IMG/VR virus record: IMGVR_UViG_3300017788_002882
Coordinates: 1 to 64,000 of that record
Length of the DNA stretch: 64,000 bases
Origin: a virus
Direction: 5' to 3' (one strand)
Under the pieces are notes generated by a model. That model was not told the DNA's origin, ran no database searches, and worked only from the letters and a program-made list of their open reading frames with translations. Positions 45,544 to 57,890 of the stretch are shown here, piece by piece. Each line of letters opens with the position of its first letter. Positions within the stretch are counted from its first letter, which is position 1. Position numbers and translations under genes: made by a program.

Positions 45544-46497
45544 ATGAAAGACCCATTATTGGATTTACATTTGTCTAAAGGACTTGGAGATACAATTTCA
45601 TCTACCCCTGTACTTCGTAAATTATTTTTTGCATACGGAAAAAAAATATCAGTACTCACAGACCATCCAGACATTTTTAAAAACAACAACTACGTTGACA
45701 AAATTTTCAACACTTCCGAAGTAAGTCGTGAAGATTTGGCAGAAAATTATGAATTGTTGGTGAGTTTTGCTCCGAATTTGGAAAACCAATACAAATTAGG
45801 ATTACGTCATAATACAATGGACATCCGACAGTTTCATGCATCGGGATTGGGATTTTCACTATTACCTGAGGAATGTCACACGGACTTTATTCCTGACGAA
45901 TGGGAACCGATTCAGGATTTACCTGAAAAATTTGTTGTGATTCATCCTGTTCAAAGTTGGGCATCAAGGACTTGGGATATTGAAAAATGGAAATTATTAA
46001 CCTCAATGTTGAATGACAATGGAATTGCGGTTGTATCTGTTGGGAAGTCTTCGAGCGAAATAGGATTTCATATGGTACAAAAACCCATTTTTGATTTTCC
46101 TATAAAATTTGGTCTGAATCTCATGAATCAAACATCCATATCTCAAACTTGGTGGTTAATCCAAAAAAGTTTGGCAATTATTACGATGGATTCAGGACTT
46201 TTACATTTGGCAGGAACCACAGATGCTCAAATCATTCAATTGGGTAGTTCAATTAATTGGAAATTGAGAGCCCCTTTCCGACACGGAAGACAAGATTATA
46301 AATATAATTATGTCGATGGTGATTGTAAAATCGCTTGCGCTTCTGACATGAGATATGGTGTCAGAGAATGGAATTCAATACGTGGAATCCCACCACTTGT
46401 TGGTTGTTTGGAAAATAAATCAGAATTTGTTTGTCACCCCAATGTGCCACAAGTTTTCAATAAAGTTTTAGAAATTCTGAAAATAATAAACCAATAA
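45544..46497 (+). CDS. GT9-family glycosyltransferase (heptosyltransferase-like)
   Basis: The 317-residue protein has the family-9 N-terminus KGLGDTISSTPVLRKLF, VIHPVQSWASRTWDIEKW (nucleotide-binding region) near residue 140, and DSGLLHLAGTTDAQIIQLGS with the conserved D-x-G-xxH near 220. GT9 enzymes use ADP-heptose or related donors, usually to build LPS core. No membrane segment or signal peptide is seen, so it acts in the cytoplasm. A role in virion or host glycan modification is inferred. Confidence 0.75.
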   Translation: MKDPLLDLHLSKGLGDTISSTPVLRKLFFAYGKKISVLTDHPDIFKNNNYVDKIFNTSEVSREDLAENYELLVSFAPNLENQYKLGLRHNTMDIRQFHASGLGFSLLPEECHTDFIPDEWEPIQDLPEKFVVIHPVQSWASRTWDIEKWKLLTSMLNDNGIAVVSVGKSSSEIGFHMVQKPIFDFPIKFGLNLMNQTSISQTWWLIQKSLAIITMDSGLLHLAGTTDAQIIQLGSSINWKLRAPFRHGRQDYKYNYVDGDCKIACASDMRYGVREWNSIRGIPPLVGCLENKSEFVCHPNVPQVFNKVLEILKIINQ

Positions 46498-46517
46498 ATT
46501 ATAAAATAGTCAAATAT

Positions 46518-47138
46518 ATGAAAAATAGAACCAAATCTCGTATTGATTTGATTATGGAAATGGGAAAAAAATTTCCGATTGGTAAAGGTATTGAAATTGG
46601 TACATTCAAAGGGGAATTTTCTAAGAAAATTGTAGAAAATTGGGGTGGGACATTGTACATGGTAGATGTTTGGAGACCCCTTCCGAATGAGGAGTACTTG
46701 GATTCGAGTAATCACGGTAATTATGAAAATGAAATTTATGTCGAGGCAATGAATAACATAAATGGATTTGAAGATAGAGCAATTATGATAAGGGCTTCGT
46801 CGGAAATTGCTTCGAACATTTTTGAAGATTACTCGTTAGATTTCGTTTACATAGATGCAAACCATGCATATGATTATGTTGTCCGAGACATTGAGTTATG
46901 GTTTCCAAAAGTAAAAAAAGGTGGTTATTTGTGTGGTCATGATTATATTGATATGGATTGGTATAATGACCCTAATTTTTGCGAAAATGGAAAAGACAAA
47001 CACATCTACAGTTCTAACTTTCAGTTTTATCACGGAGTGTTCGGAGTTAATCCTGCTGTTGATGAATTTTGTGAAAAATATAAATATGATTTTCAAATCA
47101 CAAATGAGTGGTTTGGGACATGGTGGTTAGAAAAATAA
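46518..47138 (+). CDS. Class I SAM-dependent methyltransferase
   Basis: The 206-residue Rossmann protein has motif I KGIEIGTFKGEFSKKI near residue 20, then LYMVDVW and FVYIDANHAYDYVVRDIELW near 115, and GGYLCGHDYI. The pattern resembles Methyltransf_24 proteins that accompany glycan or peptide biosynthesis. Its substrate may be a sugar moiety produced in the same locus. Six bases separate its stop from the next start. Confidence 0.75.
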   Translation: MKNRTKSRIDLIMEMGKKFPIGKGIEIGTFKGEFSKKIVENWGGTLYMVDVWRPLPNEEYLDSSNHGNYENEIYVEAMNNINGFEDRAIMIRASSEIASNIFEDYSLDFVYIDANHAYDYVVRDIELWFPKVKKGGYLCGHDYIDMDWYNDPNFCENGKDKHIYSSNFQFYHGVFGVNPAVDEFCEKYKYDFQITNEWFGTWWLEK

Positions 47139-47140
47139 AT

Positions 47141-47863
47141 ATGAAACTTTCAGTTATTGTTTTGTGTTATAATTTCGAAAAATACATTGAACAATGTTTA
47201 TTATCTATTTTGGCTCAGAGGACTACCTTTGATTTCGAAATTTTAATTAGGGATGATTTTTCGTCCGACAAGTCATCATCCATTATAAAACGAATTGCAT
47301 TTTGGAATCCAAATATTAAATTCATCGAAGGAACCGAAAATATTGGGTTTGCAAAAAGTTATAAACAACTTTTAGATTTATCACAAGGTGAATATATTGC
47401 ATATACCGACGGTGATGACTATTGGACTAATTTGTATAAATTACAAAAACAATGTGATTTTTTAGATTTCAATCCTGATTACGTTTTAACTTGTACGGGC
47501 TATTGGCAAAAGGACGAAAATGAAAATTTTATCCCGTCAGAACCAAATTTATGGCTCTGCCCACTCAAACGTGATGTCGATAATAACATTCTTTCTGAAT
47601 ATATGTTAGAAGCGAATCACTCACATTATGGAAAGTTATATCGTAATGTACCACATTTTTTTGAATATATGTACGATTTACCTTTGTTGGACTGGCCGAT
47701 GAATTTTGAACTTTCGTTATTGGGTAAAATTAAATTCTTAGACTACCCAACAGGAGTTTATAGGAAACATTCTCAAGGACTAATGAAGTCCGTAAGTTCC
47801 CAAATAAATGCAGGAGAACAAATTATAACTATCTTGAAAAAAAGGTGGAATGAAATAAATTAA
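47141..47863 (+). CDS. GT2-family glycosyltransferase
   Basis: The ATG at 47141 (MKLSVIVLCYNFEKYIEQCL) is chosen; the frame opens 33 bases earlier inside the preceding gene. The GT-A fold is clear: SVIVLCYN, LSILAQRTTFDFEILIRDDF, YTDGDDYW (DxD-like) near residue 95 and a C-terminal helical part. It transfers a sugar from a nucleotide donor in the cytoplasm, donor unknown. Confidence 0.85.
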   Translation: MKLSVIVLCYNFEKYIEQCLLSILAQRTTFDFEILIRDDFSSDKSSSIIKRIAFWNPNIKFIEGTENIGFAKSYKQLLDLSQGEYIAYTDGDDYWTNLYKLQKQCDFLDFNPDYVLTCTGYWQKDENENFIPSEPNLWLCPLKRDVDNNILSEYMLEANHSHYGKLYRNVPHFFEYMYDLPLLDWPMNFELSLLGKIKFLDYPTGVYRKHSQGLMKSVSSQINAGEQIITILKKRWNEIN

Positions 47864-47868
47864 TAAAA

Positions 47869-48510
47869 ATGGCTAATGGAATTTACAAAATAACTGAGGA
47901 TTTTGAAAAAGCACTTTCGGACTACACTGGGTCTCCGTATGTGGTGACTTTAGATAATATGAGTAACGGGCTTTTCCTTGCGTTATATTATGAACATAAA
48001 ATTAAAGGCAGAACTGAAAAGATAATTACCATCCCATCACGAACTTACCCATCGGTCCCTTGTGAAATTATTCATGCGGGGTTAAAAGTTGGGTTTGAAT
48101 CCGTAGAAGGTAAAACGATAAAAGGAGTATATCAACTTAAAGGCTCTAATGTTTGGGATTCCGCCTTAAGATTCACTGCAGATATGTATATACCAAACAC
48201 TCACATGTGTATATCATTTACTGGTCCATACAAACATTTCAAATTATCCAAGGGCGGTGCAATTTTGACGGATGACCATGAAGCATATCTTTGGTTTAAA
48301 AGAGCAAGATATAGTGGTAGAAGAGAAACTTCATACCATGATGACCATTTTGATATGTTAGGTTGGAACTTTTATATGATGCCAGAGTTAGCTGCTAGAG
48401 GAATATTATTAATGAACCAATTTTATAATTTGGATGGCACTAAAAAACACAATCAAGATTTAGAATTACCATATCCTGATTTAAGTAAATTTGAAATTTA
48501 TACAAAATGA
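47869..48510 (+). CDS. Short DegT/DnrJ/EryC1/StrS-like PLP enzyme (213 residues)
   Basis: Segments typical of sugar aminotransferases are visible: VVTLDNMSNGLFLALYY, ITIPSRTYPSVPCEIIHAGL, NVWDSALRFTAD (PLP-ring Asp) and ISFTGPYKHFKLSKGGAILT (candidate PLP-Lys). The fold's C-terminal small domain is missing: full enzymes have 370-400 residues. It could be a binding or degenerate form or need a partner. It makes or binds an amino-sugar in the locus if active. Confidence 0.6.
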   Translation: MANGIYKITEDFEKALSDYTGSPYVVTLDNMSNGLFLALYYEHKIKGRTEKIITIPSRTYPSVPCEIIHAGLKVGFESVEGKTIKGVYQLKGSNVWDSALRFTADMYIPNTHMCISFTGPYKHFKLSKGGAILTDDHEAYLWFKRARYSGRRETSYHDDHFDMLGWNFYMMPELAARGILLMNQFYNLDGTKKHNQDLELPYPDLSKFEIYTK

Positions 48511-49094
48511 AAAAGGCATTAATCGGCGCAGGAGGGTTTGCAGATGAGATAAAGGCTCAGATGAATGAGTTTGATATGATTTGTTTTGTTGATGATTTTT
48601 ATTACAAAGAAAATAATAAAAATATCCTACCTCTATCAGAATTTAATCCTGCCGAATATGAAGTTTTGGTCGCAGTGGGCGATAGTTTTTTACGAAAAGA
48701 TTTAATTAATAGATTGCCAAAAGAAACTAAGTATTTTACATTCATACATAGTTCTGCACAAATATTAGGAAATGATGTGGAAATTGGCGAAGGTAGTGTT
48801 GTATGTGCGGGAACAATAATAACTACAAATTGTATAATAGGAAAGCATACGCATTTAAACTTACATACAACAATTGGGCACGATTGTAGAATAGATGATT
48901 ACTTTACTACTGCTCCTGGTGCAAAAATATCTGGAAATAATCAAATAGGTGAGTGTGTGTACATAGGAACAAATGCATCAACTAAACAAAAGTTAAAAAT
49001 ATCAGATAATGTAGTGGTTGGGATGAACGCAGCAGTTGTAAAAGATATTTCTGAACCAGGAACCTATGTAGGAGTTCCATCAAGAAAAATATAA
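48507..49094 (+). CDS. NeuD/PglD-type sugar O-acyltransferase
   Basis: The 195-residue protein starts MKKALIGAGGFADEIKAQ, a Rossmann-like head, followed by left-handed beta-helix hexapeptides: NDVEIGEGSVVCAGTIITT, then TTIGHDCRIDDYFT with the catalytic His, and KISDNVVVGMNAAVVKDI. PglD and NeuD acetylate amino sugars (bacillosamine, sialic acid) using acetyl-CoA. It pairs with the DegT-like gene, overlapping it by ATGA, the classical order aminotransferase then acyltransferase. Confidence 0.8.
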   Translation: MKKALIGAGGFADEIKAQMNEFDMICFVDDFYYKENNKNILPLSEFNPAEYEVLVAVGDSFLRKDLINRLPKETKYFTFIHSSAQILGNDVEIGEGSVVCAGTIITTNCIIGKHTHLNLHTTIGHDCRIDDYFTTAPGAKISGNNQIGECVYIGTNASTKQKLKISDNVVVGMNAAVVKDISEPGTYVGVPSRKI

Positions 49095-49103
49095 TTTACA
49101 CAT

Positions 49104-52100
49104 ATGAAGTCATTCATTACTCACACAACCGAAAATTATGAACATATAACATTGAATTTGGTTAAAAGTATTAACAAATATTCTGACTATAAAATTATTG
49201 TTTACACAATAGACTATGATGGTTCTGAAACCCTAAAAAAAGAAACTGAATGTATTAGATTGGATTTGAATCTTCCAAATTTGGACGATTCTAGTTTCGT
49301 TTCAGATTTGAATGGTAATTTATATGTGAATCGAGGACAATTAAGGACTTATCTAACCTTAGGGGCTAAAATTGACGTTATGTTGTCAGCATCGTCGATT
49401 GTTGACGAATGGATTTATATTGACTCAGATAGTATTGTCAATACAAATATTGATGAGTTATTCTATTATTGTGAAAAAATTACAGATTTTCCTTTAGCAA
49501 GTTTAGGGCCCCAACAATACGTTTTAATTGTTGATTCTGATGGTAAAGTGAGGGGAAACCCTTATTGGAAAGAAAACGGAACTATTGATAATGAAAATAC
49601 TTTAGAGTGGCCATTAATGAGATTTATGGGTATGAATCCGAATCAGAGAAGTGATTATAGAACCACAAATTTGATTGTAGGAAATTTCAAAACTAAAGAG
49701 TTTTTGAGGACATGGAAAGAACTCAAAGATTTTTTACCGAAATTTGTATCACTAAAGACCATTGTTCCTTATCACGAAGAAACACTATACAATGTATTAA
49801 CTTGGAAAATTAACCCGAATCATGAAGGGTTGCCTATTTCATACATAAATGTTGATAGTTCCTCCACATTAAACCACTTTTTTTCGTTTGAATCAAAAAA
49901 ATTAACGAGATTAGGAGCCTTTTACACCATACCAGAAAATAAAAATGAAATCAAGATTTTCCACGGAGAAAAACGACAATCAGAAATTGATAAGATGTTT
50001 GAAATAATTGATAGTCAGAAAAAAATCAGAGTATTATTTCTATCCCCCCATCTTTCAACGGGTGGGATGCCATCTTATCTATTAAAGAGAATCGAATCTT
50101 TAATTTCATTGTATTCTGACGTTGAAATTTATGTTGCGGAGTTTTGTGAATATTCAACTCTCTATACAGTCCAAAGGGACAGGATAAAACAACTCATACC
50201 TGAAAATAGATTTTGGACAATTAATACTCTGAGTAATCACACTGTTGAAAATTCAATGAAGGTTATAGACATCATCAAGGAAAATCAAATAGATGTTGTC
50301 CATATTGATGAAATGGTGGAGGGATTCGATTCATTCAATAAAATGCCAAATGAGTTGAAAAACGCTCTATATACTGATGATAGAACATGGAGAGTTGTCG
50401 AGACTTGTCATAATATTTGGTTTGACCCCAACACTTCCAAATCGTTTCATCCCGATGCTTATGCTTTTTGTACTCCATACCATAAGGAAGTTTCTTTCAA
50501 AAACATGCCGTCTCGGAAAGAGGTTTTCGAATTTCCTATCGAAAACCGATTCAGAACTCGTGAAGAACAAGTCCGTTGTTTGGAAACTTTGGGATTGGAT
50601 ACTTTGAAGGTTCACGTTCTTAATGTTGGACTTTGGACTTCAGGGAAAAATCAGAAAGAAGGTCTCGAAATTGCAAGACATTTCCAAAATTACAATGTAG
50701 AATTCCATTTTGTTGGTAATCAAGCATCCAACTTTGAAAGCTATTGGGGACCGTTGATGAACGATTTACCTTCAAACGTCAAAGTTTGGGGTGAAAGAAG
50801 TGATGTTGAAACTTTCATGAAAGCTTCAGATGTTTTGATGTTCAATTCCACTTGGGAATGTAATCCTTTAGTAATCAGAGAAGCTGCTTCATTTGGTCTT
50901 AAGATTATTGCTCGAGATCTGCCGCAATATGTTGGAATGTTCAAGGGACTTATTTGCCCACTCGAGAATGATATACTATCGAATGTCCATTTGTTGAAAA
51001 GGCTCATTTCATCAACACGAAATTATAAAGTTTTGGATGGAATGACCTCGGAATTTGCTAAAAAACATTATGACTTATATAAATCAATTATTACTCAATC
51101 ACCAACGAAGAACGTGAAAAAAAATTCGAATGTGAAAATCAAAAAATACTTCATCACCCAACCTTTCTTAGAAATAATTGGAGAAAGTGATAGTGAGTTC
51201 GAAGTCAAATTTTTCGATGAAAAAGGTATTTGCCATTATAAAAACAAAATAAAGTCAAACCACTGGGTCAGATTGAATAGACAATACTTTACTAAATGGA
51301 ATACAAAGATTTATGAAAATGGTCTTTTGATATATGATAAAACTTTGAATTATAGTGATAAAAGGGTTTTTATTAACTTCGATAGTAAATCTTTGGGTGA
51401 TACTGTTTCTTGGATTCCTTATGCACTCGAATTTAAAAAAGCTCACAACTGTGATGTAGTTGTTTCAACGTTTTGGAACCATCTATTTAAGGAAGTTTAT
51501 CCTGAATTAGAATTTGTCCAACCAGGAACTGTAGTACACAATATTTTTGGGCAATATAATCTTGGGTGGTTTTGGGACGAAAGTAAGGAACCTGAATTAC
51601 CTAATACAATCCCATTACAAAAAGCCGCATCGAATATATTGGGTCTACCTTTTAGTGAAATCAAACCAAGAATCCATTATAAAATAGGTGAAAGACCATA
51701 CTCCGAGAAGTACATTACAATTGCAACAAATTCCACAGCGGGATGTAAATTTTGGACTAAAGAAGGTTGGCAACAATTGATAAATTATCTAAACTCAATA
51801 GGATATAAAGTTGTCAATGTCTCGAAAGAAAATAATCCGTTCGACAACTGTGTAAAATTGCAAGATACTTCTATTGAAAATACAATCAATGTTATTCACC
51901 ACAGTGAATTTTTTATTGGACTCTCAAGTGGATTGTCTTGGTTGTCATGGGGAATTGGAAAACATGTGGTTATGATTAGTAACTTTACAGAAGCCGACCA
52001 CGAATTCACATCGAATTGCACAAGAATTACGAATCCAAGTGTTTGTAACAGTTGCTGGAATAACCCTAACTACAAGTTTGATAAAGGAGATTGGAATTGG

Positions 52101-52196
52101 TGCCCAGTTCATAAAGGAACAACTCGCCAATTTGAATGTCACACATCAATAACATCTGAAATGGTGATAAATAAAATACAACACTTATTAAAATGA
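49104..52196 (+). CDS. Three-domain glycosyltransferase: GT8-like, GT4-like and TibC-type O-heptosyltransferase
   Basis: The 1030-residue protein has an N-terminal GT-A-like domain with IYIDSDSIVN (DxD) near residue 112, a GT-B domain beginning RVLFLSPHLSTGGMPS near 311 with FNSTWECNPLVIREAASFG near 585, and a C-terminal domain from about 756 (INFDSKSLGDTVSWIPYALE) with CNSCWNNPNYKFDKGDWNW, CPVHKGTTRQFECHTSI. The last signature is that of autotransporter O-heptosyltransferases (TibC, Aah), in which cysteines bind iron. These add heptose to Ser/Thr. The natural substrate may be phage virion proteins. Confidence 0.75.
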   Translation: MKSFITHTTENYEHITLNLVKSINKYSDYKIIVYTIDYDGSETLKKETECIRLDLNLPNLDDSSFVSDLNGNLYVNRGQLRTYLTLGAKIDVMLSASSIVDEWIYIDSDSIVNTNIDELFYYCEKITDFPLASLGPQQYVLIVDSDGKVRGNPYWKENGTIDNENTLEWPLMRFMGMNPNQRSDYRTTNLIVGNFKTKEFLRTWKELKDFLPKFVSLKTIVPYHEETLYNVLTWKINPNHEGLPISYINVDSSSTLNHFFSFESKKLTRLGAFYTIPENKNEIKIFHGEKRQSEIDKMFEIIDSQKKIRVLFLSPHLSTGGMPSYLLKRIESLISLYSDVEIYVAEFCEYSTLYTVQRDRIKQLIPENRFWTINTLSNHTVENSMKVIDIIKENQIDVVHIDEMVEGFDSFNKMPNELKNALYTDDRTWRVVETCHNIWFDPNTSKSFHPDAYAFCTPYHKEVSFKNMPSRKEVFEFPIENRFRTREEQVRCLETLGLDTLKVHVLNVGLWTSGKNQKEGLEIARHFQNYNVEFHFVGNQASNFESYWGPLMNDLPSNVKVWGERSDVETFMKASDVLMFNSTWECNPLVIREAASFGLKIIARDLPQYVGMFKGLICPLENDILSNVHLLKRLISSTRNYKVLDGMTSEFAKKHYDLYKSIITQSPTKNVKKNSNVKIKKYFITQPFLEIIGESDSEFEVKFFDEKGICHYKNKIKSNHWVRLNRQYFTKWNTKIYENGLLIYDKTLNYSDKRVFINFDSKSLGDTVSWIPYALEFKKAHNCDVVVSTFWNHLFKEVYPELEFVQPGTVVHNIFGQYNLGWFWDESKEPELPNTIPLQKAASNILGLPFSEIKPRIHYKIGERPYSEKYITIATNSTAGCKFWTKEGWQQLINYLNSIGYKVVNVSKENNPFDNCVKLQDTSIENTINVIHHSEFFIGLSSGLSWLSWGIGKHVVMISNFTEADHEFTSNCTRITNPSVCNSCWNNPNYKFDKGDWNWCPVHKGTTRQFECHTSITSEMVINKIQHLLK

Positions 52197-52864
52197 ACTT
52201 AGACCAATTTGTATGGGAACCAAAATGTTATAATGGATTCCGCGAAACCGTAGAACAAGAAATTTTTATTGATAAAATTTATGAAAGACATGTTCGAGTT
52301 GAAGAAGGTGATGTAGTTTTTGACATTGGAGCAAGTTTGGGGCCATTCACATTTTCTATATTAGATAAATCCCCGTCACAAGTTTTTGCTTTCGAACCAA
52401 GTTACGAAGAATTCAAAACATTGGTCCTTAACACAAGACATGGGAACGTAACTCATATCAATAAGGGCATTAGTAACATTGTAGGAGAATTTAATTTTAC
52501 AGACGTATTCGATTTGACAGGGAATCACAAACTATATTCAACATCATTTAAAAAAGTTATTGAAGATTATGGAATCAAAAAAATTGATTTTTTGAAAACG
52601 GATTGTGAAAGTGGTGAGTATGAGATTTTCACTTTAGATAATTTGTTTTGGATTAAAAACAACGTAAAAAAAATATCAGGTGAGTGGCACTTGAGAACTC
52701 CTGAACTTAAGGAAAAATTTAAGATTTTTAGAGATGTTTACCTACGATTTTTCCCAAACTTCAAAATATTTTCTTTCGATGGAGTTGATATTACTTGGTC
52801 AATTTGGAATGAGGATTTTATTCCGTACTATAATGAAGTTATGATATACATTGATAATAGATAA
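52193..52864 (+). CDS. FkbM-family methyltransferase
   Basis: The 223-residue protein has SAM-binding motif VFDIGASLGPFTFSI near residue 45, then VFAFEPSYEEFKTL, and KKIDFLKTDCESGEYEI near 130, the classical FkbM sequence. Members O-methylate sugars or polyketides. The ATG overlaps the preceding stop by four bases. A sugar or peptide hydroxyl produced by the neighbours may be the substrate; this is inference. Confidence 0.8.
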   Translation: MNLDQFVWEPKCYNGFRETVEQEIFIDKIYERHVRVEEGDVVFDIGASLGPFTFSILDKSPSQVFAFEPSYEEFKTLVLNTRHGNVTHINKGISNIVGEFNFTDVFDLTGNHKLYSTSFKKVIEDYGIKKIDFLKTDCESGEYEIFTLDNLFWIKNNVKKISGEWHLRTPELKEKFKIFRDVYLRFFPNFKIFSFDGVDITWSIWNEDFIPYYNEVMIYIDNR

Positions 52865-52881
52865 AGACTTTGAGTTGCACT

Positions 52882-52891
52882 ATATTTATAC
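52882..52891 (+). promoter_or_regulatory. TATTTAT-type upstream element
   Basis: ATATTTATAC on the plus strand, 21 bases before the ATG of the tandem-Hint gene. Confidence 0.35.
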
Positions 52892-52912: not shown

Positions 52913-55651
52913 ATGAAAGGAACAGTATTCTCAGCCGATTTTGTCAAAGACTCTAACGGAAACTTAAGATTATTAGAACTGAACACGGATACAGGGTTTA
53001 TAGATCAGGAATTAGTAAATTTTGATTTCAATGGATTCTTGACTGTATTGTCTTCTAATAACATCACAACATTAGACATTATTTATAAACCATTTTTGCA
53101 CATTGATTTTGTTAATAAATTGATAGAAGAGGTGAATAATACCTTACCACTTATTTCAATCACCTTACATGATGAAAACATTAATTCAATCTATCCGACA
53201 TCAGTTCCTGATGCCGCAGATAAATTTGTGTTGAGATTAGCTTACGACGAAACTGCAATATTTGATAGTGTTTACTGTAAAAATAGATTGAATGTTTATA
53301 ATTTGTTCACTGAAGGTTCAATTACAGACAACTGTGTTGGTTATTACCATTCTTCATCTTTGGGAACTTTTGACACCTTAACAAAAGAGGTAAATGCCTC
53401 TAATATACCAGATGCCGCGATAAAAGACATTTACGAATCATTCAATCCAATTGATTTTTACAAAATAAATGTTGACAATGGAACAGTTGAAGAAAATTGG
53501 GATAATTTTATTCAAGATAAATCTGCAGAAGATATTCTGATTGAACAATACCATTTTCATTCGTCAACTCTCGATGAGAATAACCACGTTACGTCTATCA
53601 GATTTTTTGCAATAGTATATGGCCCTAATTTAGACATTCTTCCTTTACATAGTTACAAAATAAGTTCAATATTCGAACTACCCACTTCGATTGATTTGGA
53701 AGAAAACTCAAATAAAGTGAAAGATTATCATTTTTATGAATTTGCAACTAATATGTTCAAAAAAGATTCTGCTGGAATCTTATCTTCACACGAAGTTTTA
53801 ATGGGGGACCAAACTTGGGAAGAAATATCCGAGATTCAGGTTGGAGATAGTATTCAATCTTATTTAATTAGTGGTTCACCACAAAGTGAATCTGATTTAA
53901 ATTCTTTGAGTTGGAACTATGAAGGTGACGAATTTCCTGAAGGGTCTTATCTAACAACCTCCAATGTAGTATTCAAAGATGTTGCCAATTTAAAATATAA
54001 TTCTATGATGGAAATGGTAATAGATAGTGATTCATTATTTTCAGGCATTAATAAAAAATATTTAGTCTATGATAGTTTAACTAATAAAAGTAGTTATAAA
54101 TTTATCTCAGAAATCAATGCAATTACAGACTACCTTTATGACATAAATGGACAACTAATTCAAGTTGATGAACTAAATTTTTATGTATCTTCAGAAAATG
54201 GGTTGTCGTTTGTAGAACTTGATGTTGAAGATTCGGACACTTATATTATAAATGGATCTACAGCGTTTCATAGTGTAGTTTCTCATAACGCTCCTTGTTT
54301 TGTAGCAGGAACTCCGATTTTGATGGCAGATGGAAGTCAGTTGAACATTGAAGATGTAAAAATTGGTGACAAAATTTTATCATTCGATTTTAAAAATAAT
54401 GATTCAAAAATTGGACAAGTGCTCAATATATTTTCAAGAAAGGTTAATAAAATTGTCGAATATGAATTTTCTAATGGTGGAATACTCAAATCTACATTGG
54501 ACCATCCATTATATGCTTTAGACAAAGGATGGTCATCATATTCTGAAACCTTATCAAATAATTTGTACAGTTTAGAAGAGTCTGTTAAAAAAATTGAAGT
54601 CGGTGATACTATAAAGTTTTACGATAGTACTTCAACTATTACTCAAATGCAAGTTTTTGATGGAGATTTTACGGTTTACAACTTATCAGAAATCGAAAAA
54701 TACCATAATTACTACGCTAATAATGTCTTAGTCCATAATCGATTTTGTTTTGTAAAAGGTACAATGATTGAAATGGCAGATGGGACATCAAAAAAAATTG
54801 AAGATGTTAAAATAGATGATTTAGTAATTTCTTTTAATGAAGAAACAAAAACTAAGGAATCTCAAAAAGTTACAAAAATAGTTTCCCCAATTCACAACGA
54901 TTTAGTAATTTATCATTTCGAAAACGGTAAAAATATTACTTGTACATTTGACCATCCATTCTATGTAAATGGTTTAGAACTAGCTTCATATAAACCTTCT
55001 TTGACAAACGACAGATATAAACTTGGTGTCGATGTTTCCCAAATAAAAATCGGTGATGTTGTCAACTTAATTGATGATACGTTTACTACAATAACTTCAT
55101 TCGAGGAATTAGAAAAGTCTCAGACTGAAACTTTTATATTTGAAGTAGAAAATAATCATAATTTTTATGCAAACGGTATTCTTACTCACAACAAATTCTG
55201 TTTCATAGCAGGAACAAAAATTTTGTTAGAAGACGATATCGAAAAAAACATAGAAGAAATACAAATCGGTGATGTAGTTTTATCATATAACGAAGAAAAA
55301 AAAACCATCGAACCCAAAAAGGTTACAAACACTTCTTCACCAATACATGATGATTTAGTAGAATATACTTTATCGAATGGGATTAAAATAACTTCAACTT
55401 TTGACCACCCGTATTATGTTAATGGTTTGGAACTTGCGTCTTACAAACCAGAGTGGACCAATGAAAGATACATTTTACCTTCCAATGTGATTGAAATTAG
55501 AGTTGGAGATTTTGTAAATCTGTCTGACAATGAAACTGTAAAAATTGAATCTATAATGGAATTAAGTCGAATTAACACTCGGACGTATATCATTTCTGTG
55601 GAAGACAATCACAATTTTTACGCAAATAAAATTTTAGTACATAACAAATAA
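52913..55651 (+). CDS. Protein with four tandem Hint (intein-like) domains (912 residues)
   Basis: The N-terminal 285 residues (ADFVKDSNGNLRLLELNTDT, a motif resembling the end of ATP-grasp folds) carry no clear enzyme. A degenerate Hint domain (residues about 290-459) ends in VVSHN. Three well-preserved ones follow: Cys462-Asn609, Cys612-Asn760 and Cys763-Asn911. Each has CF[VI]xGT at the start, TxDHP (TxxH block B) in the middle and HN at the end. The linkers are AP, RF and KF, and a single Lys ends the protein. Hint domains self-cleave at both ends; +1 Cys/Ser/Thr directly after HN is absent, so splicing is not expected. Virion role likely. Confidence 0.8.
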   Translation: MKGTVFSADFVKDSNGNLRLLELNTDTGFIDQELVNFDFNGFLTVLSSNNITTLDIIYKPFLHIDFVNKLIEEVNNTLPLISITLHDENINSIYPTSVPDAADKFVLRLAYDETAIFDSVYCKNRLNVYNLFTEGSITDNCVGYYHSSSLGTFDTLTKEVNASNIPDAAIKDIYESFNPIDFYKINVDNGTVEENWDNFIQDKSAEDILIEQYHFHSSTLDENNHVTSIRFFAIVYGPNLDILPLHSYKISSIFELPTSIDLEENSNKVKDYHFYEFATNMFKKDSAGILSSHEVLMGDQTWEEISEIQVGDSIQSYLISGSPQSESDLNSLSWNYEGDEFPEGSYLTTSNVVFKDVANLKYNSMMEMVIDSDSLFSGINKKYLVYDSLTNKSSYKFISEINAITDYLYDINGQLIQVDELNFYVSSENGLSFVELDVEDSDTYIINGSTAFHSVVSHNAPCFVAGTPILMADGSQLNIEDVKIGDKILSFDFKNNDSKIGQVLNIFSRKVNKIVEYEFSNGGILKSTLDHPLYALDKGWSSYSETLSNNLYSLEESVKKIEVGDTIKFYDSTSTITQMQVFDGDFTVYNLSEIEKYHNYYANNVLVHNRFCFVKGTMIEMADGTSKKIEDVKIDDLVISFNEETKTKESQKVTKIVSPIHNDLVIYHFENGKNITCTFDHPFYVNGLELASYKPSLTNDRYKLGVDVSQIKIGDVVNLIDDTFTTITSFEELEKSQTETFIFEVENNHNFYANGILTHNKFCFIAGTKILLEDDIEKNIEEIQIGDVVLSYNEEKKTIEPKKVTNTSSPIHDDLVEYTLSNGIKITSTFDHPYYVNGLELASYKPEWTNERYILPSNVIEIRVGDFVNLSDNETVKIESIMELSRINTRTYIISVEDNHNFYANKILVHNK

Positions 55652-55654
55652 ACT

Positions 55655-55807
55655 ATGGATATTACAAAACACCCAAATCTATATAAAAAGAAACCACTAA
55701 GCGAAGTAAAGAATAGAACAACTTCATATTTGTCTAATACTGAAAAAGCTAGATTAGACAGTGTAATCAACAAGTTTTTTGAATTATTCATCGCTAAACA
55801 TTTGTAA
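55655..55807 (+). CDS. Small basic protein (50 residues)
   Basis: ATG at 55655-55657, TAA at 55805-55807, four bases after the Hint gene stop and overlapping the next ATG as TAATG. Sequence MDITKHPNLYKKKPLSEVKN, with a helix ARLDSVINKFFELFI. Too short for a family call; position implies co-transcription with the SET-domain gene. Confidence 0.6.
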   Translation: MDITKHPNLYKKKPLSEVKNRTTSYLSNTEKARLDSVINKFFELFIAKHL

Positions 55808-56262
55808 TGGATGCATACAATTACATAAAAAATCATGTTTTTGTAAAACTTAAACCAAGCAAAATTTCGGGTGTAGGAGTCTTTGCGATTAAGGAAATTC
55901 CAATGGATACAGAATTGTTTCATGTGTGGGAAGGTAAAACTGGATTCTATCCCATTTCACAGACCGAATTGAATGATTTGGATTCTGATTTACAAAATCA
56001 CATTCATGATTTATTTTTATTATCTACTCAATTTCCATTAGACACTAATATCTATGTTAAGTTGACTAAAGGTTGTCATTGGATTTACACAAATCCATAC
56101 TATTTTGTTAATAGTGGGTTTTATACTAAAAATGCAAACATTGATAAAGAAAGTATGAAATCAATCGAACATATTAGGAAAGGTGAAGAACTTTTGAGTA
56201 ATTACCAAAGACATGAAAAAATAGATACACAATTTTATGGTTCAGTTAATAAAATTATCTGA
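55807..56262 (+). CDS. SET-domain protein (copy 1)
   Basis: The 151-residue protein has the SET N-motif KPSKISGVGVFAIKEIPMDT near residue 20, then VNSGFYTKNANIDKESM and IRKGEELLSNY, which correspond to the SAM-binding NH- and GEEL.NY motifs. SET proteins methylate lysines, mainly in proteins. The classic NHS triad is altered (VNSGF), so substrate or activity may differ. It is paired with the oxygenase-like gene that overlaps it by 26 bases and has a duplicate at 56845-57318. Confidence 0.75.
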   Translation: MDAYNYIKNHVFVKLKPSKISGVGVFAIKEIPMDTELFHVWEGKTGFYPISQTELNDLDSDLQNHIHDLFLLSTQFPLDTNIYVKLTKGCHWIYTNPYYFVNSGFYTKNANIDKESMKSIEHIRKGEELLSNYQRHEKIDTQFYGSVNKII

Positions 56263-56836
56263 TAAATTCACAATTTACAAATCTCACGACGAGAATTTTT
56301 CTAATATCAAAAACGATTGCATCAAATATGTGAAATTAAATGATTCATTAGTTATTCACCCAACTCCACAAAATAAAAACAATTCAATTTGGGTAGAAAT
56401 AAAATCTGAATGTTTTTTAACCATTAACAACTTAATCAAAAGTCATGTGGAAAAAATTTCTGGTGAAAAATTTAAAAATTACGCTGAACATTTTTGGATA
56501 TATACCCAAACTAAAGGGTTTAATTTAGAATGGATGCATCAACATCTATTAGTTCATCCACCTGGAGTATCATTTATTAAAACAGATTATACTTTCACAT
56601 ACTATTTTCAAACCCCAACTGATATAAGTGGAGATGAGGGTCACATAGTATTTGAAACTGAGGATGGTGTAAGACATAAGTTTTTACCTGAAGAGGGAGA
56701 TTTTTTTATTTTTCCAGCAGACATACGACATACTGCAATACCGACTCCTAACTCTGAGATAGATAGAATCGTTTACGCAGGAAACCTATGTTTAAACATT
56801 GAAAATCAACGAGAAATTGGGACAACTTTAATTTAA
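56237..56836 (+). CDS. Putative 2OG-Fe(II) oxygenase (copy 1)
   Basis: The 199-residue protein contains FWIYTQTKGF, EWMHQHLLVH, KTDYTFTYYFQTP, GDEGHIVFETED, EGDFFIFPADIRHTAIPTP and IDRIVYAGNLC. The His of MHQH, the distal His of ADIRH and the Arg before VYAGN match a cupin-fold oxygenase of the 2OG-FeII_Oxy_5 type. It may hydroxylate a peptide side chain. Its paralogue at 57336-57890 shows the same elements. Iron-ligand assignment is inferred. Confidence 0.6.
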   Translation: MVQLIKLSDKFTIYKSHDENFSNIKNDCIKYVKLNDSLVIHPTPQNKNNSIWVEIKSECFLTINNLIKSHVEKISGEKFKNYAEHFWIYTQTKGFNLEWMHQHLLVHPPGVSFIKTDYTFTYYFQTPTDISGDEGHIVFETEDGVRHKFLPEEGDFFIFPADIRHTAIPTPNSEIDRIVYAGNLCLNIENQREIGTTLI

Positions 56837-56844
56837 TAAAAATC

Positions 56845-57318
56845 ATGACACCATTTGAATATATAAAAAACTATGTAGTGAGTGCACTAAAGCCAAGTCG
56901 TATTCACGGAGTTGGATTTTTTGCAATCAGAGATATTGAAATTGGTGAATCAATATTTAATCCTTGGTTTGGTGAAAGTGGGATATATTCTATCGACCAC
57001 GATGAATTATTTCAATTACCAACGGAATTACAAAAAACAATGTTAGAAACTTTTGACAATAAAATATTCTATATTAACAAAGAAAACCAAGAACAATACA
57101 TAGAAAAAGAGTATGGTAAAATTTTCTTCCCATTAGAAAAAGGGTTTCATTGGATTTATATTTGGCCGAAAACTTTTATTAATAGTGGATTAAATAACGC
57201 GAATGTCGATACAATTAATCATGTTAATCCAATTGCATTAAGAAAGATATACAGTGGCGAAGAACTATTAGCGAACTACGGCTCAGAATTTAAGACTACT
57301 CCGAAAAACTTTATATAG
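56845..57318 (+). CDS. SET-domain protein (copy 2)
   Basis: Paralogue of the 55807-56262 protein: KPSRIHGVGFFAIRDIEIGE near residue 20, INSGLNNANVDTINHV, and IYSGEELLANYGSEF near the end. A longer N-terminal half is conserved too (SALKPSRI versus KLKPSKI). The 157-residue length equals the first copy. It probably methylates a protein lysine. It lies 17 bases before its own oxygenase partner. Confidence 0.75.
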   Translation: MTPFEYIKNYVVSALKPSRIHGVGFFAIRDIEIGESIFNPWFGESGIYSIDHDELFQLPTELQKTMLETFDNKIFYINKENQEQYIEKEYGKIFFPLEKGFHWIYIWPKTFINSGLNNANVDTINHVNPIALRKIYSGEELLANYGSEFKTTPKNFI

Positions 57319-57335
57319 AAACCCCTATAAAAAAA

Positions 57336-57890
57336 ATGACACATAATGTAAAATACAATTGGGAGTTCAATAAAGAAGACATACTTCGAAAAGTCTATAA
57401 AAATAAATCCCTACTGAAACAACCAAATGGTAATACATCACAAAACACAGATGAATTAATGTTTTGTTGTAGAGAATTTGACTCCATCAAAAATTTTGTT
57501 GTTAATCAGTATTTTGAATTAAAAAAAACTCAACATGTAGATTATGCGGTCAGTATGTGGTCTTACATCCAAACAAAAGATTTGCCTCCATCGAATTATA
57601 TATGGCACACACACTCAAAATTAGATGGAGGTAGAACCCAACTTAAAACTGATTACACATTTGTTTTCTATGTACAAATACCCCCAAATTTGGAGAATGG
57701 GGAAGGTGACTTATTGATTAAAGATAAAAACAATCATATTCATAGGATTACACCAAAGGAGGGTGAAATCATTTTTTTCCCTGGATATTTATGGCATGTT
57801 CCAACACACACACCAACATCTACTATTGATAGGGTTGTTATTGCGGGAAATATTTCTTCTGAATTTTTATTAAATACCGTTTTAATATAA
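57336..57890 (+). CDS. Putative 2OG-Fe(II) oxygenase (copy 2)
   Basis: The 184-residue protein has SMWSYIQTKDL, YIWHTHSKLDGG, KTDYTFVFYVQIP, GDLLIKDKNN, EGEIIFFPGYLWHVPTHTP and IDRVVIAGN. It aligns block by block with the 56237-56836 protein, with WHTH replacing WMHQH. Same inferred role: oxidation of a peptide or small substrate with 2-oxoglutarate and iron in the cytoplasm. Two alternative His-x-His pairs make the ligand set uncertain. Confidence 0.6.
   Translation: MTHNVKYNWEFNKEDILRKVYKNKSLLKQPNGNTSQNTDELMFCCREFDSIKNFVVNQYFELKKTQHVDYAVSMWSYIQTKDLPPSNYIWHTHSKLDGGRTQLKTDYTFVFYVQIPPNLENGEGDLLIKDKNNHIHRITPKEGEIIFFPGYLWHVPTHTPTSTIDRVVIAGNISSEFLLNTVLI

What the first reader, a model, noticed from the sequence alone, without database searches (positions are those of the whole stretch)
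52913..55651. Array of four tandem Hint domains separated by dipeptides
The sequence shows three intact Hint domains of 148-149 residues, with the motif C-F-[VI]-x-G-T at each start, T-x-D-H-P in block B and H-N at each end, preceded by a degenerate copy. The linkers are only two residues (AP, RF, KF) and one Lys ends the protein. Hint domains are known to cleave peptide bonds at their ends. Canonical splicing needs Cys/Ser/Thr right after HN, which is absent. If each domain cuts at both ends the protein would fall into a head of about 290-460 residues, separate Hint modules and dipeptides. I do not know of a described array like this.
Basis: partly seen in the sequence, partly recalled or inferred. 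Interest (0 to 1): 0.88.

Follow-up and report, generated by a model that had tools for sequence, protein, structure and literature searches.

The report
Phage protein with tandem self-cutting domains
A large uncultured phage encodes a protein ending in a row of three intact, apparently self-cutting "Hint" modules placed behind a dead fourth one; the same layout recurs in dozens of related phages, and tandem rows of such modules had no description in the papers searched, so it is a natural test case for how these modules cut or join proteins when stacked.

Summary
ORF 52913-55651 (912 aa) is: head 1-287; degenerate Hint 288-459; intact Hints 462-609, 612-760 and 763-911, separated by AP, RF and KF; final K912. 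Profiles and fold match Hint/bacterial intein-like (BIL) domains, best to BIL2 of the Tetrahymena BUBL1 locus and a Clostridium BIL. The array is not a quirk: about 49 distinct uncultured relatives share the head and degenerate Hint and carry 0-3 intact Hints; some lie in T4-like contigs of 200-326 kb. In 24 aligned intact copies only nine columns never vary, and five are catalytic (C1, T67, H70, H148, N149). The degenerate copy lost Cys1 and the block-B His but keeps its terminal Asn in 30/30 relatives. Proteins ending within four residues of a Hint's HN have Lys next in 49/50 cases. Other tandem arrays sit in unrelated phage proteins, including four Hints separated by single lysines in a tail-protein homologue. 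The features are those of A-type BILs, which cleave and can splice without a +1 nucleophile. Most likely the array is a self-removing C-terminal cassette leaving a core of about 459 residues, perhaps with a short basic tail. The head is probably GspS/YgiC-like. No activity was tested. New variant of a known kind.

The parts
52913..55651 (+). whole ORF, 912 aa: head + degenerate Hint + three intact tandem Hints + Lys
52913..53773 (+). head, residues 1-287; invariant D9, E22, N24, R108, K123, K171, K184, R230 in 24 relatives; FSADFV...LRLLELNTDT resembles the ExN motif of GspS/YgiC-type ATP-grasp ligases
   Evidence: hhalign against the YgiC family score 40.7 vs at most 18.8 in 100 shuffles
53774..54289 (+). 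degenerate Hint, residues 288-459: Gly for Cys1, block-B His lost, terminal Asn kept
54284..54289 (+). His458-Asn459 of the degenerate Hint; Asn in 30/30, His in 27/30 relatives
54290..54295 (+). linker Ala-Pro (AP or SP in most relatives, absent in some: HN directly followed by Cys1)
54296..54739 (+). intact Hint A, C462-N609
54740..54745 (+). linker Arg-Phe
54746..55192 (+). intact Hint B, C612-N760
55193..55198 (+). linker Lys-Phe
55199..55645 (+). intact Hint C, C763-N911
55646..55648 (+). C-terminal Lys912, the whole C-flank of Hint C
   Evidence: Lys follows HN in 49 of 50 proteins that end within four residues of a Hint HN
55655..55807 (+). conserved partner gene, 50 aa, directly downstream
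   Evidence: after nearly every family member; 28 of 28 relatives found in viral contigs lie in family contigs
52881..52890 (+). TATATTTATA; related A/T motif upstream of nearly all family genes, possible promoter element
   Evidence: by eye

Best explanation
The C-terminal half of the protein is a self-processing cassette of A-type BIL-like Hint domains stacked head to tail. Shown from sequence: each of the three intact domains has the residues for both half-reactions (Cys1 plus block-B T-x-x-H for the N-terminal thioester; His-Asn for Asn cyclisation at the C-terminus) and lacks a +1 Cys/Ser/Thr. The first domain has lost the N-terminal machinery but keeps its C-terminal Asn. Inferred: after folding, each live domain cuts itself out, mostly by uncoupled N- and C-terminal cleavage and perhaps partly by aminolysis splicing. 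The product is a core of head plus dead Hint (residues 1-459) with either no tail or a short basic one: complete splicing would leave AP-RF-KF-K. The dead Hint would be a fixed part of the mature core whose retained Asn can still cut the array away. The core probably acts as, or derives from, a GspS/YgiC-like ATP-grasp ligase working with the adjacent 50-aa protein. Copy number changes by recombination between modules.
For: Fold and family. Of nine invariant columns in 24 diverse intact copies, five are catalytic: C1, T67, H70, H148, N149 (same residues). Dead first domain: Asn kept 30/30 while Cys1 and block-B His are lost; it matches intact Hints of two other proteins from the same phages along its whole length (E about 1e-11). 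Core conserved while the cassette varies: head + dead Hint in all; 0 (L070/L071), 1, 2 or 3 intact Hints. Hint-less L070/L071 end in a 7-residue tail after HN (NKLKPYQ or NKLKPST), similar in length to the predicted spliced tail. Modules recombine: head 94% but Hint A 57% identical between window and L004; distant lineages share 82-86% identical terminal modules; L021's last Hint is chimeric. An independent 4-Hint array (L203) sits just before DPLAQTF in a homologue of tail adsorption proteins whose flanks are contiguous in isolated phages. A-type BIL chemistry: PMC4031507, PMC5874633, PMC7765530.
Against: No activity data. Block-F His is lost in some copies. Pro at -1 of Hint A in most members would be expected to slow thioester formation (general intein knowledge). 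Cleavage of the last Hint from a lone Lys has no obvious purpose. The ATP-grasp link rests on a partial profile match (hhalign probability 58%); no Pfam or PDB sequence hit reached significance, and Foldseek gave only weak GSS/YgiC-type matches.
Confidence: 0.6

Rival explanations
1. Conjugation device. The Cys1 thioester is resolved by an amine, such as the epsilon-amine of the conserved +1 Lys, a Lys of the adjacent 50-aa protein or a polyamine, so that the core is joined by an isopeptide or amide bond to a partner, as reported for Tetrahymena BIL2.
For: Best structural match is BIL2, for which isopeptide formation with Lys of the C-flank is described in PMC8616854. +1 is Lys in 49/50 terminal cases and Arg or Lys in 46/57 internal ones. 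A conserved Lys-containing 50-aa partner is present downstream. Head is similar to peptide-spermidine ligase YgiC.
Against: Lys +1 also occurs in many single-Hint phage proteins of other kinds, so it may simply suit Asn cyclisation. No ubiquitin-like domain is recognised. Partner conjugation is pure inference.
Confidence: 0.15
2. Passenger modules. The Hints are neutral or selfish domains that spread by recombination and persist because they remove themselves; copy number is of no use to the phage.
For: 0-3 copies with one core; module exchange between distant lineages; chimeric copy; L070/L071 do without.
Against: No homing endonuclease (copies are 148-149 aa); purifying selection on terminal copies, which a stop codon could remove; the dead first Hint is kept everywhere with its Asn.
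Confidence: 0.15
3. Structural repeat. The Hints do not cut; they form a rod or binding module, and the catalytic residues are kept for folding.
For: Hint folds exist without activity (the degenerate copy itself).
Against: The degenerate copy shows the fold persists without Cys1 and the block-B His, yet these are invariant in all intact copies.
Confidence: 0.08

Closest known systems
A-type bacterial intein-like (BIL) domains (e.g. Clostridium thermocellum BIL, PDB 2lwy)
   Same: Hint fold, Cys1, block-B TxxH, C-terminal HN, no +1 Cys/Ser/Thr, sit in variable proteins
   Different: Here three to four domains are stacked with 0-12 residue linkers behind a dead copy, in phage; single domains are what the held reviews describe
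BUBL polyubiquitin-like loci of Tetrahymena (BIL2, PDB 6y75/6tmm)
   Same: Best structural match; BIL domain in a polypeptide of several modules; Lys as nucleophile described for BIL2
   Different: In BUBL1 the BIL2 domain is flanked by ubiquitin-like domains; here BILs abut each other and no ubiquitin-like domain was recognised
Canonical inteins
   Same: Fold and catalytic residues
   Different: No +1 nucleophile, no homing endonuclease, not inside a conserved active site of an essential enzyme
C-terminal Hint of Flavobacteriia RHS-type proteins (Dokdonia L271, Spongiivirga L273)
   Same: Among the closest cellular Hints found (38-43% identity), HN followed by a short K/R-starting tail
   Different: Single Hint; RHS-like body, no ATP-grasp-like head
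GspS/YgiC/YjfC ATP-grasp ligases, also found in T4-like Aeromonas and Acinetobacter phages
   Same: D..........LLExNxDT motif and following region of the head
   Different: The proteins compared have no Hints; only about 102 columns align; rest of the domain not detected

Membership tests
A-type BIL domain | Hint fold | tested here: met
   Pfam, Foldseek
A-type BIL domain | Cys/Ser at position 1 and block-B TxxH | tested here: met
   all three intact window copies and all aligned relatives
A-type BIL domain | C-terminal His-Asn | tested here: met
A-type BIL domain | no obligatory Cys/Ser/Thr at +1 | tested here: met
   R, K and K in the window; R/K in most relatives
A-type BIL domain | self-cleavage, some splicing | not testable with these tools
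   needs expression
Canonical (class 1) intein | +1 Cys/Ser/Thr | tested here: not met
Canonical (class 1) intein | interrupts a conserved protein whose flanks are both needed | tested here: not met
   window array is C-terminal, followed by one Lys; however the separate L203 array does interrupt a conserved tail protein
Hedgehog Hog domain | no C-terminal HN; sterol-recognition region after the Hint | tested here: not met
   HN present and nothing but Lys follows
BUBL-type BIL locus | ubiquitin-like domains next to BILs | tested here: not met
   linkers of 0-12 residues; no ubiquitin-like Pfam hit
Polymorphic toxin (PT-HINT) | toxin domain after the Hint | tested here: not met
   the protein ends one residue after the last Hint
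GspS/YgiC-type ATP-grasp ligase (head) | metal-binding ExN motif | tested here: met
   E22 and N24 invariant in 24 relatives
GspS/YgiC-type ATP-grasp ligase (head) | homology over the whole catalytic domain | tested here: inconclusive
   partial profile match above 100 shuffles, one member weakly hits PF03738 (E=0.053), no PDB profile hit

The most novel reading that the evidence does not exclude
The tandem array is a tail writer: successive splicing by stacked BILs joins the one- or two-residue linkers, acting as miniature exteins, onto a ligase-like core and ends it with a Lys that may serve as an attachment point. That would be protein splicing used to build a short sequence rather than to remove a parasite.
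Probability: 0.15. Interest if true: 0.88.

Novelty: new variant of a known kind. Interest (0 to 1): 0.64.

Why it matters
Single BILs and inteins are well studied, but my literature searches found no description of Hint domains stacked with 0-2 residue linkers. Such arrays ask whether one domain's Asn cyclisation and the next domain's thioester compete for nearly the same bond, and in relatives where HN is directly followed by Cys1 they target exactly the same bond. The dead first copy, stripped of its N-terminal chemistry but keeping its terminal Asn in every aligned relative, is a natural mutant that isolates C-terminal cleavage. The recurrence in large phages, with a strong Lys/Arg preference at +1, also offers many natural modules for protein-cleavage and ligation tools. 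The array inside a tail adsorption protein homologue (L203) makes splicing versus cutting directly testable.

Tried and rejected
Assembly artefact: rejected (copies 54-62% identical in DNA; same layout in many contigs). Canonical intein: rejected for lack of a +1 nucleophile. AXH (ataxin) Pfam hit 3.2e-35: not pursued; I take it as overlap of that model with the Hint profiles, since the top PDB matches are BILs. Polymorphic toxin: no toxin domain follows. Head: Pfam and PDB profile searches gave nothing significant; PDB and viral Foldseek of a low-confidence model (pLDDT 54.9) had no E below 0.001. Head in isolated phages (diverged members matched only through their Hints) and in bacterial/archaeal genomes: none found. 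Late-promoter idea for TATATTTATA: the gp23 upstream region lacks it, so left open. Literature for tandem Hint/intein arrays: no paper held; the primary BIL papers (2003, 2004) were not found in the library, so an earlier mention cannot be excluded. A family search with a mis-framed stretch of L203 failed and was not repeated.

Full report
What is there. The ORF at 52913-55651 (+) encodes 912 residues. Three stretches match Pfam Intein_splicing, Hint and Hom_end_hint. PDB sequence hits are BIL2 of Tetrahymena, a bacterial BIL and inteins. An AlphaFold2 model of residues 277-912 (modest confidence) matches BIL2 (6y75, TM 0.85 over the target) and the Clostridium BIL (2lwy, TM 0.85) best.

The degenerate copy is a Hint. 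Aligned over 30 relatives it matches the intact copies with E=1.2e-8, score 57 against at most 21.5 in 100 column shuffles. It also matches, end to end and including its insert, intact Hints in two other proteins of the same phage group, L118 and L119, at E about 1e-11. It has lost Cys1 (Gly in most) and the block-B His, yet the terminal Asn is present in 30/30 and the penultimate His in 27/30.

A conserved family. The head has no match in 50,697 phage records (two diverged members matched only through their Hints) and none in 84,980 bacterial and archaeal species genomes, but scans of IMG/VR found it in many uncultured viral contigs, about 49 distinct proteins by my count. Contigs of 94, 202, 276 and 326 kb carry a T4-type gp23 capsid gene. 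Every full-length member has head + degenerate Hint. Intact copies number 0 (L070, L071), 1 (e.g. L065, L130), 2 (most) or 3 (window, L004, L009, L010, L011, L129). In one subgroup the last module is a short Hint variant without HN (L012-L014, L016, L017).

Catalytic residues are what selection keeps. In 24 diverse intact copies only nine columns are invariant: C1, F2, G5, E19, T67, H70, L146, H148, N149; five of them are intein catalytic residues. dN/dS is 0.04-0.28 across head, dead Hint and intact Hints wherever dS was not saturated. The exception, 0.58 for window against L012 in the last module, compares two different module types. The block-F His is less strict: lost in several copies.

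Linkers and ends. By a motif count over distinct proteins, the residue after HN is Arg or Lys in 46/57 internal junctions, Lys in 49/50 proteins that stop within four residues, and Lys in 24/35 followed by longer sequence. The junction after the dead copy is different: Ala/Ser-Pro in most members, nothing in L055, L061, L068, L133, L202, L216 and L218, where HN abuts Cys1 directly.

Modules move. Between the window and L004 the heads are 94% identical but Hints A, B and C only 57, 64 and 82%. The terminal Hint of L059 is 82% identical to that of L015, and that of L055 86% to that of L017, although their heads are from distant branches. L021's last Hint starts like a middle copy and continues like a terminal one. 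Unequal recombination and module exchange explain the copy-number differences.

Not restricted to this head. Other arrays lie in IMG/VR: L158/L161 and L164-type proteins, with a remotely related head (hhalign score 34 against at most 17 in 40 shuffles), again a first Hint without Cys1 and then two or three more Hints; L142, the same plan followed by a long repetitive C-terminal region; L190; and L203, four Hints linked by single lysines. The L203 array lies directly before DPLAQTF in a homologue of tail adsorption (VrlC-like) proteins; the joined flanks match 205 phage records over at least 80% of their length, and the four inspected have no array. The insertion is in a variable linker, so cutting there is not excluded, but rejoining would restore the usual protein.

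The head. It starts FSADFVKDSNGNLRLLELNTDT. I recognised this as like the ExN motif of GspS/YgiC ATP-grasp ligases and tested it: a profile of 24 heads against 12 GspS/YgiC-type proteins gives score 40.7, probability 58%, over 102 columns; 100 column shuffles reach at most 18.8. Pfam, PDB profile and fold searches do not reach significance. I call it probable, not shown. YgiC is annotated as a peptide-spermidine ligase and homologues occur in T4-like Aeromonas and Acinetobacter phages.

The partner gene. A 43-52 aa ORF (window 55655-55807; Y10, K11, F41, H49 invariant in 15 aligned) follows nearly every family member, even where other neighbours differ. A scan with its alignment found 28 loci, all in family contigs. 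It may be a substrate, a subunit or a chaperone; nothing here decides.

Mechanism. Reviews state that A-type BILs have HN, lack the +1 nucleophile, form the N-terminal thioester, cleave by Asn cyclisation and can splice when the freed amino group attacks the thioester, with cleavage products dominating (PMC4031507; PMC5874633; PMC7765530). All sequence criteria are met. I therefore expect the cassette to cut itself away from a core of 459 residues; with complete splicing the core would end in APRFKFK. The Hint-less members L070/L071 end with seven residues after HN, which fits either outcome. BIL2 can instead form an isopeptide bond with a lysine of the C-flank (PMC8616854), hence the conjugation rival. 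No step of this chemistry was tested for these proteins.

Limits. All relatives outside the comparison sets are metagenomic contigs, mostly incomplete. Structural models had thin alignments. Motif counts are regular-expression based. Novelty rests on an open-access library in which the primary 2003-2004 BIL papers were not found.

Noticed in passing
window 55655-55807: 50-aa ORF, conserved directly behind nearly every family member and not detected elsewhere in viral contigs; function unknown.
   Followed up: yes
window 55807-57890: Downstream genes: a SET-domain-like protein, a 2OG-Fe(II) oxygenase-like one, a second SET-like paralogue and another oxygenase-like gene; SET-like genes also follow most freshwater relatives.
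   Followed up: partly
window 45544-52864: Cluster of glycosyltransferase, aminotransferase-like, acyltransferase-like and FkbM methyltransferase genes, including a 1030-aa protein with at least two glycosyltransferase domains; a carbamoyltransferase and radical SAM genes lie further on in the same contig.
   Followed up: partly
L118 (G004:85500-89500), L119 (G008:77500-82000): Other proteins of these phages, structural-looking by eye, carry a single intact Hint with HN followed by K (long C-flank) or AKGGAPPG (end).
   Followed up: partly
L051:10724-11224: Stand-alone 166-aa Hint protein, ending HNKNL, in the same phage as a family member.
   Followed up: no
L203: Four tandem Hints separated by single lysines in a tail adsorption protein homologue, just before the conserved DPLAQTF stretch.
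   Followed up: partly
L142: Head + Cys1-less Hint + intact Hint followed by a long repetitive C-terminal region that looks like a propeller-type repeat; may be a receptor-binding fusion.
   Followed up: no
window 52881-52890 and upstream of relatives: Recurrent TATATTTATA-like motif 20-50 bases before the start codon; may be a promoter (Bacteroidota-like?), not seen before gp23.
   Followed up: partly
L271, L273: Two of the closest cellular Hints found are at the C-terminus of RHS-type proteins of Flavobacteriia, suggesting gene exchange with such hosts.
   Followed up: partly
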